Part shown: one piece after another, positions 13,396-16,180 of the stretch
Numbering within the stretch: position 1 is the first letter of the stretch
Layout of the letters: every line of letters begins with the position of its first letter
Origin: Verrucomicrobiota bacterium
GTDB lineage: Bacteria; Verrucomicrobiota; Verrucomicrobiia; Opitutales; UBA2995
Length of the DNA stretch: 17,007 nucleotides
NCBI GenBank assembly: GCA_027297085.1
Contig: JAPUIL010000744.1
Coordinates: 1-17,007 of the forward strand
Reading direction: 5' to 3'
The notes under the pieces: model-generated
What the model was told of the DNA's origin: nothing
The model's database searches: none
Seen by the model: the letters and a program-made list of their open reading frames with translations, nothing else
Made by a program: the position numbers and the translations under genes

Positions 13396-13772
13396 GCCTG
13401 TTAGCTTTATTTTTGAATGGATTGGGTGGTGCTTTGGGGTCGATTTTGCGAGCCTTGATTGCGGTTGGAATTAGAACCGAATTTCCTTGGGCTACCCTTC
13501 TCGCGAATGTTACTGGCTGCCTGCTGATCGGCCTGGTCATAGGTCATGAGTCCGTCACGTCTGATTGGGCCCATCATTCTCGTGGGTTTGTAGTCATAGG
13601 ATTTTGCGGCGGCTTCACGACCTTTTCGACGTTTGGACTTCAGACAATCAAGCAGCTGGAATCCGGTAATATCGAGAGTGCGTTTTCCAACATTCTTTTG
13701 TCTCTTGTTGTTTGCCTTATTGCGGTATGGGCAGGGATCAAGCTCGGCAAACTGCTGTTTCAAGGAGGATGA
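13392..13772 (+). CDS. crcB: Fluoride ion channel CrcB/Fluc
   Basis: CrcB (Fluc) is a small dual-topology channel that exports fluoride. The 126-residue protein has four hydrophobic helices. It shows NGLGGALGSILRALI at the first helix, WATLLANVTGCLLIGL (conserved pore-region Asn) at the second and GFCGGFTTFSTFGLQT (the signature with the central break and phenylalanines) at the third. The fourth helix is LLSLVVCLIAVWAGIKLG. Overlaps of four bases join it to the amidase upstream and the TIGR03790 gene downstream. No fluoride riboswitch is visible near it, so any fluoride response would have to act elsewhere. The pairing with cell-wall and exported proteins is probably only operon packing. Confidence 0.94.
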   Translation: MSLLALFLNGLGGALGSILRALIAVGIRTEFPWATLLANVTGCLLIGLVIGHESVTSDWAHHSRGFVVIGFCGGFTTFSTFGLQTIKQLESGNIESAFSNILLSLVVCLIAVWAGIKLGKLLFQGG

Positions 13773-15382
13773 GAGCTTGCTGTACGATCCTGATGATCTA
13801 CTGCTTCTGGTGGTTGCAGGTCTCAGCGATTGATACGGAGAATGTGGTTATATTGGTAAATTCGACTGATCAGGAATCAATCGACCTGGGATATTACTAT
13901 GCGCTTAAGCGCAACGTGCCTACCCAAAACATTATTCAACTTCCGTTACCGGCCGAAGAAAAAATCTCCTGGGAAAGCTATTTGGATAGTCTCTACAATC
14001 CATTGGTGACCCAGTTGCTTGCAGCGGGTTGGTTGGAAGGATTTAGTTCTCGTCGTAAAGATCCTTTGGGCCGTGTAGTTAGCCTAATTGAATCGCACCG
14101 CATAGAAGCGCTGGTTATCTGCAAGGGAGTTCCTCTCCGCATTCTGAACGATCCGGCACGATTACCAGCCGGGGAGACGTATCCTAAAGGCAAGAAACAA
14201 TTTTATACCAACCGTGCAGCGGTCGATTCTGAGTTGGCTCTGCTTCCTTTTCCCAAAGCCAATGTGGATGCCTTCTACCCCAATTCGCTTTATAGGCGAA
14301 CAAAGCCGAGGAATCTATTTGATATGAAACCGCTAGTGGTTGGCCGGTTGGACGGACCTTCCTACGAGTTGGCCCGAGCGTTGGTAGACCGTGCGATCAC
14401 TGCAGAGGAAGATGGCATCGCTGGCAGGGCTTATGTCGATATGTCCGGTCCCCATGAACAGGGCGATGAGTGGCTGGAATCGGTTGTGGAAACCTTGGAG
14501 GAAAATGGCTTTGATGTCGCTGTCCACCGAGAGAAAGGTCAATTCAATTTGGTGGACCGTTTTGATGAGCCACTTTTCTATTTCGGATGGTATTCAGGCG
14601 GCATAGATGGGCCGTTTACTCAGTACGGCTTTAAATTTCCTGTAGGGGCAATAGCCCTGCACATTCACAGTTTTAGCGCCTCTTCCATACGCACTAGCAG
14701 CAAGCATTGGGTGGGTCCTCTGATAGCCCGCGGCGTGACTGCTACCTTTGGAAATACATCTGAGCCTTTTTTGTTTCTGACTCATCAACCGCAGTATTTC
14801 GTGGAAGGCCTGTTTAAGGGCCTGACCACTGGAGAAGCAGCTTTGTTCTGTGTGCCAGCACTAAGCTGGGTTGGAATTTTTATTGGAGATCCTTTGTACC
14901 TGCCACCATTGGGATTCAAACTATTGCCCAAGAATGAATACGATGTGCTTCGTACAGCCAATAAGGCCCGGCGTGCAGGAGATGCTTCCGCATACAAGGC
15001 TGTGGTGTCCGAGCATTCCCGCTCCGGTCACTTTGCGACTGGGTTGTGGTTGCACCGCTACTTCCTGGCCCGCAATGATCCTGATTCAGCATACGAATAC
15101 CTGCAATCTACCTACCGGCCTTCGCTTGATGACTCTAAAAATTGGGGGATTTTAGTGGAAATCTCCGAAGCCTACTTTGAGCTCGATTACAAAAAGGAAG
15201 CCGAAGGCATACTGGATGGCTTGCTCAAGTTCACCCGTTCAAAGCGGGAAGTACAATTACAGCTGTTGGATAAATCTATTCAACTTGCCACCTATTACGG
15301 ACTGCTGGAGAAAGCTGATATCTGGCAGAAGCGCCTGAATGAACTGACAGCTCCAGCAGAAGAAAAAGCAAATAAGAACTAA
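13769..15382 (+). CDS. Exported TIGR03790 family protein with helical-repeat C terminus
   Basis: The protein belongs to TIGR03790, a family of unknown function found mainly in Verrucomicrobiota, Planctomycetota and some other environmental lineages. Signatures include VVILVNSTDQESIDLGYYYALKRNVP, IEALVICKGVPLRI, VVGRLDGPSYELARALVDRA and WYSGGIDGPF. Further on come GAIALHIHSFSASSIR, the WVGPLIARGVTATFGN segment and FIGDPLY. ATG 13769 (537 residues) is preferred to an earlier in-frame start at 13712. It overlaps the crcB stop as ATGA, and MRACCTILMIYCFWWLQVSA makes a good signal peptide. AAGGAGG directly abuts this ATG, unusually close. After about residue 390 the chain turns helical and TPR-like (NDPDSAYEYLQSTY, KKEAEGILDGLLKF). 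Its TAA lies in a 4-bp repeat flanking the element downstream. Confidence 0.85.
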   Translation: MRACCTILMIYCFWWLQVSAIDTENVVILVNSTDQESIDLGYYYALKRNVPTQNIIQLPLPAEEKISWESYLDSLYNPLVTQLLAAGWLEGFSSRRKDPLGRVVSLIESHRIEALVICKGVPLRILNDPARLPAGETYPKGKKQFYTNRAAVDSELALLPFPKANVDAFYPNSLYRRTKPRNLFDMKPLVVGRLDGPSYELARALVDRAITAEEDGIAGRAYVDMSGPHEQGDEWLESVVETLEENGFDVAVHREKGQFNLVDRFDEPLFYFGWYSGGIDGPFTQYGFKFPVGAIALHIHSFSASSIRTSSKHWVGPLIARGVTATFGNTSEPFLFLTHQPQYFVEGLFKGLTTGEAALFCVPALSWVGIFIGDPLYLPPLGFKLLPKNEYDVLRTANKARRAGDASAYKAVVSEHSRSGHFATGLWLHRYFLARNDPDSAYEYLQSTYRPSLDDSKNWGILVEISEAYFELDYKKEAEGILDGLLKFTRSKREVQLQLLDKSIQLATYYGLLEKADIWQKRLNELTAPAEEKANKN

Positions 15383-15396
15383 CCTGCAATTCTCAC
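15383..15396 (+). repeat. Left terminal inverted repeat of the MITE-like element
   Basis: CCTGCAATTCTCAC is the exact reverse complement of 15588-15601. It directly follows the CTAA copy that contains the TIGR03790 stop codon. Confidence 0.85.
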
Positions 15397-15587
15397 CGGA
15401 TGAATTCAAACTAAAGTAATGTTATTTTTATACGGTAATTATGGAATTAGTCGAAATTGCAGTCTGTCAATCACCGGTTTGCATCCATCCTCGGGCTGAC
15501 ATTCCGCGTATTCCTTCCTCCTGGATTGGTTACGCACTGAAGTGCGCGCCCGCACCTATCGGTCGTCAAGCACGGCATCTCAACTCT

Positions 15588-15601
15588 GTGAGAATTGCAG
15601 G
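15588..15601 (-). repeat. Right terminal inverted repeat of the MITE-like element
   Basis: GTGAGAATTGCAGG mirrors 15383-15396. It is directly followed by the second CTAA copy, whose first three bases are the clpP stop codon read on the minus strand (TAG). Confidence 0.85.
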
Positions 15602-16180
15602 CTAAACGCCTTCCACAACCGCGTCCGCTAAACCGTATTCGATTGCTTCCCGTGCGTTCATGTAAAAATCGCGGTCCGTGTCTTCGGTGATTTTTTCCAG
15701 ACTTTGCCCGGATGATTCAGCCAGAATTTTATTCAATTCCTCGCGCGTTCGTTCCATTTCAAGAGCCTGGATATTGATATCAACGGCAGGTCCCGTGAAG
15801 CGGCCTTGAATCAAAGGCTGGTGAATGAGCACTCGGGCATGAGGATACAGCAAGCGTTTACCCTTGGGAGCTCCGCATAACAAAATAGATCCCATGCTGG
15901 CGGCCAGGGCAGTTACTATCACCGTCACCGGCGAGGTGATCAGTTTCATGGTATCGTAGATCGCCATGCCGCCAGTAATGCTCCCGCCCGGTGTGTTGAC
16001 ATAAAAAGTAATCTCTTTTCCGGGGTCATTCCATTCAAGGTAGAGCAACTTCTCAGTGACTTCCTTGGCTGACTTCTCAGTGACGTCGGTCCATAGAAAT
16101 ACCTTTCGTGCATCTAAAAATTTCTTTTGCATCGCTTCCAATAGTGGAGACGGGCTTTTTGATTCCTGTTCTTCAGACAT
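15602..16180 (-). CDS. clpP: ATP-dependent Clp protease proteolytic subunit
   Basis: ClpP forms the barrel-shaped serine peptidase that degrades proteins unfolded by ClpX or ClpA. The 192-residue protein has the catalytic triad Ser95 (AASMGS), His120 (VLIHQP) and Asp171 (TDRDFYMNA). Other core motifs are FYVNTPGGSITGGMAIYDTM, ILLCGAPKGKRLLYPHAR and EAIEYGLADAVV at the C terminus. Length and order are normal. No clpX or tig lies next to it, unlike the common tig-clpP-clpX order, so it may be one of several clpP copies. The ATG has no Shine-Dalgarno sequence. The gene ends at the edge of the MITE-like element, and its TAG lies in the duplicated CTAA. Confidence 0.96.
   Translation of the reverse strand: MSEEQESKSPSPLLEAMQKKFLDARKVFLWTDVTEKSAKEVTEKLLYLEWNDPGKEITFYVNTPGGSITGGMAIYDTMKLITSPVTVIVTALAASMGSILLCGAPKGKRLLYPHARVLIHQPLIQGRFTGPAVDINIQALEMERTREELNKILAESSGQSLEKITEDTDRDFYMNAREAIEYGLADAVVEGV

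What the first reader, a model, noticed from the sequence alone, without database searches (positions are those of the whole stretch)
15379..15605. A 219-bp MITE-like element with 14-bp perfect ends and a CTAA target duplication
The sequence shows perfect 14-bp terminal inverted repeats (CCTGCAATTCTCAC/GTGAGAATTGCAGG) with CTAA directly repeated outside both. A perfect inverted repeat of this length bordered exactly by a direct repeat is very unlikely by chance. It lacks coding capacity, so it must be mobilised in trans. CTAA fits the YTAR target known for IS5-family transposases, but the family assignment is inference.
Basis: partly seen in the sequence, partly recalled or inferred. Interest (0 to 1): 0.75.

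Follow-up and report, generated by a model that had tools for sequence, protein, structure and literature searches.

The report
Stop-codon-docking folded mobile repeat
The window holds one recently inserted copy of a small mobile DNA element that carries no gene, folds into a conserved three-armed shape, and often lands exactly on the stop codon of a gene, so that it can spread with little damage to proteins.

Summary
Confirmed and extended. The 219-bp element (15383-15601) with perfect 14-bp ends and CTAA repeats belongs to a family with 64 core matches in its own draft genome and matches in 6 of 6 held genomes of the genus (uncultured Opitutales, inferred). The locus is empty in 4 of 4 relatives that keep the neighbouring gene, so insertion is shown. 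In the own genome 12 of 47 copies keep identical flanking 4-mers, all YTAR.

A relative (G002) has an IS1634-family transposase gene beside an end, CTAA-CCCGACTTTCTCAAC, that matches the element's ends: the likely mobiliser is IS1634-like, not IS5.

It is more than a plain MITE. Its ends are the base stem of a three-way junction whose arms covary: they differ between copies but pair within each. The strand opposite to the upstream gene folds better in 86 of 94 copies. In 85 of 127 copies the left end sits on the stop codon of a co-oriented gene (49 in one register), against 8 of 127 at the mirror position. A similar layout (stop codon, stem, GTCACGCAC-NNNN-GTGCGCTCC hairpin) occurs in genomes labelled Dormiibacterota, Changshengia and Sandaracinaceae.

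Why orientation is one-sided and structure is kept remains open.

The parts
15379..15382 (+). Left copy of the 4-bp target duplication CTAA; its TAA is the stop codon of the upstream gene (13712-15382)
   Evidence: empty sites of relatives
15383..15601 (+). The element, 219 bp, no conserved coding capacity
   Evidence: no conserved ORF behind the conserved ATG of the better-folding strand
15383..15396 (+). P1 left arm = left terminal inverted repeat CCTGCAATTCTCAC
15398..15410 (+). P2 left arm (GGATGAATTCAAA); partly paired in this copy, near-perfect in many others
15478..15490 (+). P2 right arm (TTTGCATCCATCC)
15491..15601 (+). Conserved core (P3 and inner hairpins), the 111-position part modelled as R1
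15533..15546 (+). Apical hairpin CGCAC-TGAA-GTGCG, among the most conserved parts and the piece shared with other phyla
15588..15601 (+). P1 right arm = right terminal inverted repeat GTGAGAATTGCAGG
15602..15605 (+). Right copy of CTAA; holds the stop codon (TAG on the minus strand) of the convergent gene
13712..15382 (+). Upstream co-oriented gene, 556 aa, no Pfam match; its stop codon lies in the left CTAA
15602..16180 (-). Convergent ClpP-like protease gene; its stop codon lies in the right CTAA

Best explanation
A non-autonomous mobile element of about 219 bp that inserts into YTAR and duplicates it, moved in trans by an IS1634-family (DDE) transposase whose ends it shares. YTAR reads as a stop codon (TAR) on both strands, so an insertion on a terminal stop codon, or between two convergent genes whose stop codons overlap as in the window, rebuilds the stop on each side and leaves both proteins unchanged. 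The element folds as a three-way junction: P1 is its terminal inverted repeat, P2 a long-loop hairpin, P3 a long imperfect stem ending in a conserved GCAC/GTGC hairpin. Copies persist at gene 3' ends, usually with the left end next to the stop codon and the better-folding strand antisense to the gene, and keep their pairing while their sequence changes. Shown: insertion with duplication, copy number, fold with covariation, stop-codon register, orientation bias, and one IS1634 end in a relative that matches. Inferred: that this transposase moves the element; that the folded bottom strand (RNA or single-stranded DNA) is what the machinery or selection reads; that the bias comes from orientation-specific insertion or from selection against the reverse orientation.
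For: Empty sites at the window locus in 4 of 4 relatives with the upstream gene and at a second locus, L021, in G002. 12 of 47 G000 copies with identical YTAR flanks, 3.5 expected. Mobiliser: in G002 an IS1634-family transposase (L221, 402 codons to the contig edge) has about 100 nt before its frame the end CTAA-CCCGACTTTCTCAAC, 14 of 15 bases like the left end of element copy L007; outside element copies no YTAR-flanked end with at most one mismatch to the 13-base consensus occurred in 397,926 background positions. A second G002 IS1634 copy (L219, 66% identical transposase) has perfect 16-bp inverted ends CCCGACTTGGCCGATT with CTAA on one side and CTAG on the other. Covariation: 677 cells with changes on both sides against 213 in shuffles, score 0.430 against 0.162, 0 of 500 shuffles as high, collapse on sliding (70 copies). 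Within-copy against cross-copy pairing: P2 at least 11 of 12 in 73 of 141 against 100 of 1410; P1 at least 10 of 11 in 55 of 107 against 47 of 535. Same-gene loci: of 274 changed stem positions 117 are double changes to a new Watson-Crick pair. Bottom strand folds better in 86 of 94 (control 37 of 94). Stop codon at left boundary in 85 of 127, mirror 8 of 127, random sites 38 of 2144.
Against: Only one end of the matching IS is seen (its contig stops inside the gene) and it lies in another species; PF01609 gave only 2 weak hits in G000, a 76%-complete draft in 849 contigs, and no two of the 80 TIR pattern matches in G000 lie at IS length on one contig (20 of these regions were read). As I recall, IS1634-family duplications are usually 5-6 bp, not 4; not checked. 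P1 sequences of old copies differ so much that one transposase could hardly recognise all by sequence. A symmetric target such as YTAR gives no reason for one-sided orientation. Identical 4-mers are rare in the other genomes (2 of 89 copies in G001-G005). In G036 the left end abuts a minus-gene start (11 of 28) about as often as a plus-gene stop (8 of 28), and 25 of 27 matches in one 66-kb region lie on one strand, so the stop-codon rule is not universal. Some same-gene copies may be separate insertions at one stop codon, which would weaken the same-gene count.
Confidence: 0.78

Rival explanations
1. A cis-acting structured RNA (3'-UTR element, terminator or mRNA stabiliser) kept by host selection; mobility is a minor or past feature.
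For: Stop-codon register, compensatory changes at same-gene loci, presence at the same gene in several species, similar layout in other phyla.
Against: The better-folding strand is antisense to the upstream gene; no Rfam family at its gathering score; the window copy is absent from 4 relatives; matching IS end. I saw no T-run after the right arm in the copies printed, but did not count it.
Confidence: 0.12
2. A plain MITE: TIR-recognised and selfish; stop-codon docking only reflects survival of harmless insertions, and pairing is kept by arm-to-arm template switching, not by selection.
For: TSDs and a recent subfamily with shared ends in G000; IS1634 end in G002; internally deleted and end-only derivatives.
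Against: Survival alone does not explain 85 left against 8 right, since the duplication spares the stop codon in either orientation. The excess of A-C over G-T mismatches in P1 and P2 (182 against 70) suggests one strand is read, though P3 and inner stems show none (125 against 119). Template switching was not tested.
Confidence: 0.35
3. Integron-like attC site marking the end of gene cassettes.
For: Site after the stop codon, folded bottom strand, variable arms, and a one-strand cluster in G036.
Against: G001 has 43 core matches but only two PF00589 matches; none of 30 ORFs scanned in the G036 cluster matched a recombinase family, and they include chromosomal-type and Mu-like phage genes; the element moves alone with a TSD.
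Confidence: 0.02
4. REP/REPIN-type repeat moved by a Y1 (RAYT) transposase acting on single-stranded hairpins.
For: Palindromic, high copy, downstream of genes; GTAG REPs often supply a TAG stop codon (passages of PMC3733652).
Against: Length about 219 bp against 20-40 bp in that paper, a 4-bp duplication, and a DDE-type IS with the same end. Y1 transposases were not searched.
Confidence: 0.03

Closest known systems
Bacterial MITEs (review PMC10969869, passages seen; ERIC, RUP, Correia elements recalled)
   Same: Short, non-coding, multi-copy, inverted-repeat ends, TSD, ends shared with an IS
   Different: Ends of old copies covary instead of staying constant; conserved three-way junction and inner hairpin; one-sided stop-codon docking
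IS1634-family insertion sequences (NCBIfam NF033559)
   Same: A G002 member has an end CTAA-CCCGACTTTCTCAAC like the element's; another has CCCG ends at YTAR
   Different: The element has no transposase; beyond about 15 terminal bases no similarity was established
IS5-group target choice (YTAR; two passages of PMC10359306)
   Same: 4-bp YTAR duplication
   Different: The transposase beside the matching end is IS1634-like, not IS5
GTAG/CGTC-tagged REPs (passages of PMC3733652)
   Same: Palindromic repeats mostly downstream of genes; GTAG ends often provide a TAG stop codon; abundant in O. terrae (Verrucomicrobia)
   Different: 20-40 bp against 219 bp; target duplication; conserved core
IS1272, inverted-repeat-replacing transposition (abstract of PMC5678879)
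   Same: Mobile element tied to hairpin-forming inverted repeats
   Different: IS1272 targets existing inverted repeats with no TSD; here young copies bring their own P1 and make a TSD
Integron attC sites (recalled)
   Same: Follows a stop codon; bottom strand folds; arms vary
   Different: Present without an integron integrase in G001; element moves alone with a TSD

Membership tests
MITE | Short, no transposase gene | tested here: met
   219 bp; frames behind the conserved bottom-strand ATG have a median of 9 codons in 99 copies
MITE | Terminal inverted repeats | tested here: met
   14-bp perfect
MITE | Target site duplication with empty site in relatives | tested here: met
MITE | Ends shared with an autonomous IS | tested here: met
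   one end of an IS1634-family copy in G002, 14 of 15 bases like copy L007; not seen in G000; the other end of that IS is off its contig
MITE | TIR sequence conserved among copies | tested here: inconclusive
   conserved in the young G000 copies, not among old copies
IS5-mobilised element | YTAR duplication | tested here: met
   12 of 12 identical pairs in G000 are YTAR
IS5-mobilised element | IS5-family transposase with these ends | tested here: not met
   the transposase beside the matching end is IS1634-family; IS5_3 model 19.4 bits, cut-off 110. IS5-specific models were not searched genome-wide
IS1634-mobilised element | IS1634 transposase acting on these ends | not testable with these tools
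   end match and family match only; activity needs an assay
Integron attC | IntI-type integrase in the genome | tested here: not met
   G001 has two PF00589 matches (frames of 310 and 320 codons), which I read as XerC/XerD
Integron attC | Cassette arrays as the main setting | tested here: not met
   matches dispersed over the one-contig 4.8-Mb genome G001
REP/REPIN | 20-40 bp palindrome | tested here: not met
   219 bp with three main stems; size from the abstract of PMC3733652
REP/REPIN | Y1 (RAYT) transposase | not tested
   no Y1 family search was run
Any Rfam 15 family | Match at gathering score | tested here: not met
   window 15200-15800 (best: sR32, 15.1 bits against 40, inside the element) and 20 loci searched with the evalue setting; no match reached its gathering score

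The most novel reading that the evidence does not exclude
A class of mobile elements recognised by folded shape as well as by a few end bases, which places itself in one register and one orientation on stop codons (and, in two Actinomycetota copies, just after a tRNA gene) in several bacterial phyla, so that its spread is matched to the ends of genes.
Probability: 0.25. Interest if true: 0.9.

Novelty: new variant of a known kind. Interest (0 to 1): 0.68.

Why it matters
It suggests a simple rule by which a mobile element can spread through compact genomes without breaking genes: target the tetramer that is a stop codon on both strands. It also joins two usually separate things, a transposable element and a structured-RNA-like motif with strong covariation, and so makes it testable whether shape, beyond end sequence, is what mobilises or preserves such repeats.

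Tried and rejected
Integron/attC reading, raised by the one-strand cluster in G036, was followed and rejected: no recombinase family among 30 scanned ORFs of the cluster, chromosomal-type and Mu-like phage genes inside, two PF00589 matches in G001. A coding reading of the conserved GGAGGAAC..ATG on the bottom strand failed (median 9 codons in 99 copies). IS with matching ends: one search was first read as negative; on re-checking, L219 and L221 proved to be IS1634-family copies, and for that reason I raised the confidence of the best explanation from 0.72 to 0.78, moved odds among the rivals, lowered the novel case from 0.30 to 0.25 and the interest from 0.70 to 0.68. Another G002 locus, L218, is an IS4-family transposase inside perfect 14-bp ends (GGGGCTGAATTGAG) flanked by TTAA; its ends do not resemble the element's. 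Other transposase families were not searched. The pattern scan of viral contigs gave 0. A genome-contig scan with the upstream protein found nothing. Order search: 18 of 273 genomes; phylum search: 7 of 387, mostly weak; both with strict filters and few candidates scored per genome. Literature: 8 searches; I saw no description of this element in the listings; most subscription journals are not held. The mir-942 and mir-3121 matches at L133 lie about 0.9 kb from the element and were taken as chance or another palindrome.

Limits: 141 copies were examined of 188 R1 matches in the genus. P1 and P2 were located automatically; copies with nested inserts score low. In one search, 127 of 142 model matches were counted (13 too near a contig or locus edge, 2 partial). 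One search used the 107 copies with P2 of at least 10 of 12, another the 94 without long inserts, a chosen 70 of those. The structure counted was derived from the same alignment, so the share of paired cells leans upward; shuffles and slides are the controls. In one search, 22 copy pairs were compared, most in both directions, so counts are not independent. In one search, 28 of 33 G036 cluster matches were used (weak or truncated ones dropped). In one search some copies from related genomes are near-identical, so the 22 are not independent.

Full report
OBSERVATION. The window shows CTAA-[219 bp]-CTAA with perfect 14-bp inverted ends. The left CTAA contains the TAA stop of a 556-aa gene (13712-15382, +) and the right CTAA the TAG stop, on the minus strand, of a ClpP-like gene (15602-16180, -).

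IT IS A REPEAT. The own genome gave 42 blastn matches and 64 matches to a core model R1. With R1, 6 of 6 held genomes of the genus have matches: G000 64, G001 43, G003 39, G005 32, G002 9, G004 1 (150 candidates scored per genome, so lower bounds, while contig breaks can split a copy). Contig lengths of G003 and G005 equal those of Opitutales bacterium UBA2995 and an uncultured Opitutales bin (against 83), so the window genus is placed in Opitutales, Verrucomicrobiota, by inference. With the full model R2, 18 of 273 genomes of the order and 7 of 387 of the phylum match: patchy.

IT INSERTS. Five of six genus genomes, the own one included, have the upstream gene. In G002, G004, G005 and G001 it is followed within a few bases by the ClpP-like gene, whose stop tetramer reads CTAA, CTAA, CTAA and CTAG, and no element; in G002 the two stops overlap in one CTAA exactly as they would have before insertion, in the other three they lie a few bases apart. 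A second copy, L021, lies between two co-oriented genes in G000; the best match of the first gene in G002 (83% identity) is followed by the next gene without the element. In G000, 12 of 47 copies keep identical flanking 4-mers, all YTAR; shuffling gives 3.5. The other genomes keep 2 of 89, as expected of older copies. Among 51 extracted G000 cores, copies with intact duplications have nearer relatives (mean best identity 0.91 against 0.83). Internally deleted and end-only derivatives exist.

WHAT MOVES IT. Among the DDE_Tnp_1 loci of G002 (8 matches; G000 has 2 weak ones), L221 has an IS1634-family transposase cut by the contig end (196.7 bits, cut-off 100). About 100 nt before its frame stands CTAA-CCCGACTTTCTCAAC, 14 of 15 bases like the left end of copy L007 (CCCGGCTTTCTCAAC) and flanked by YTAR. 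In 397,926 background positions, 16 ends with at most one mismatch to the 13-base consensus occurred; the 4 with YTAR before them all belong to element copies. L219, with a transposase 66% identical over 367 residues and IS1634 family at 312 bits, has perfect 16-bp ends CCCGACTTGGCCGATT, flanked by CTAA and CTAG. So the IS5 guess gives way to an IS1634-family mobiliser, seen in a relative and with one matching end only.

IT HAS A SHAPE. On 70 copies, 57 pairs, 53 with changes on both sides; 677 such cells against 213 in shuffles, score 0.430 against 0.162, at most 0.119 when the partner is slid by 1-3 columns. Arms pair within a copy far better than across copies: P2 73 of 141 against 100 of 1410, P1 55 of 107 against 47 of 535. 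At same-gene loci in different species, of 274 changed stem positions 117 are double changes to another Watson-Crick pair, 43 become A-C, 24 G-T, 90 other; 618 were unchanged and 28 fell in gaps. Some such pairs may be separate insertions at one stop codon. The bottom strand is more stable as RNA in 86 of 94 copies, mean -74.3 against -61.4 kcal/mol, while coding control pieces show no such bias (37 of 94). In P1 and P2, A-C mismatches on the top strand outnumber G-T, 182 against 70; A-C on top is a wobble pair on the bottom strand. In P3 and inner stems the difference vanishes (125 against 119).

IT DOCKS ON STOP CODONS. 85 of 127 copies have the stop of a co-oriented ORF of at least 100 codons at the left boundary, 49 in one exact register; at the mirror position 8 of 127, of which 7 also have the left one; random positions 38 of 2144 on each side. 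By genome, left/right: G000 22/4 of 40, G001 28/1 of 35, G003 14/1 of 21, G005 17/2 of 23, G002 4/0 of 7, G004 0/0 of 1. YTAR is TAR, a stop, read on either strand, which explains harmlessness but not the one-sidedness.

BEYOND THE GENUS. G036 (another family of the order) has 27 of its 29 matches in one 66-kb region, 25 of them on one strand; the left end abuts a plus-gene stop in 8 of 28 or a minus-gene start in 11 of 28, the right end 1 and 1. In 8 copies from five further genomes of the order (G014, G034, G156, G186, G210) the left end abuts a plus-gene stop in 4. The core hairpin pattern found 39 stretches in named genomes, 17 labelled Opitutales or Opitutia, 9 Dormiibacterota, 3 Actinomycetota, 2 Sandaracinaceae, 2 Changshengia, 6 others. 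Of 25 R2 matches in 24 loci of that scan (all but most Opitutales), 2 are full-length (L226, an Opitutia; L245, an Eggerthellaceae) and the rest cover the hairpin region only, so homology of the whole element across phyla is not shown. Yet in 22 distinct copies from Dormiibacterota, Changshengia, Sandaracinaceae and Actinomycetota records, 19 have an ORF stop 30-85 nt upstream, and in 14 of those 19 ten bases at the stop pair at 9 or 10 positions with the downstream side, against 18 of 570 controls; for Sandaracinaceae alone this holds in 2 of 5. In two Actinomycetota copies the hairpin begins about 50 nt after the end of a tRNA-Ile and a tRNA-Ser gene.

MECHANISM. Best supported: a non-autonomous element moved in trans by an IS1634-family transposase at YTAR. 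The fold may be read by the mobilising machinery, by the host, or kept by arm-to-arm copying; the data do not decide. That YTAR is the IS5 motif is stated in passages of PMC10359306; here the motif alone misled.

Noticed in passing
L010, L011, L013, L022, L029, L033 (P2/P3 junction); L064, L065, L087, L106, L137, L142 (core); L018, L031, L148, L158: At least three other short hairpin-like inserts sit at recurring places inside copies of the element: perhaps nested mini-elements.
   Followed up: partly
L149, L150, L152, L154, L156 (left-end matches): Derivatives of little more than the two end repeats, some by eye next to a stop codon; L145 and L146 end at an internal CGGGCT, as if by deletion between direct repeats.
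   Followed up: partly
L174-L177, L199 (G036:C11:56-123 kb): Dense, nearly one-strand cluster of about 30 elements across chromosomal-type genes and a Mu-like phage region, many followed by a short GGTCTACGAA-like motif.
   Followed up: partly
right flanks of G001 copies, e.g. L050, L063, L067, L068, L072: A CGTCG.GCTCGCGG-like sequence often follows the right end within a few bases; it recalls CGTC-tagged REPs but was not tested.
   Followed up: no
L182:8526-8932: Two matches face each other, the second resembling an inverted copy of the first's left part, making a long palindrome.
   Followed up: no
bottom strand of the core, e.g. window about 15500-15520: A conserved GGAGGAACACTCGGCATG (ribosome-site-like, then ATG) with no conserved reading frame behind it.
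   Followed up: yes
L218 (G002:C174): An IS4-family transposase between perfect 14-bp ends flanked by TTAA, a second YTAR-type insertion in the genus.
   Followed up: partly
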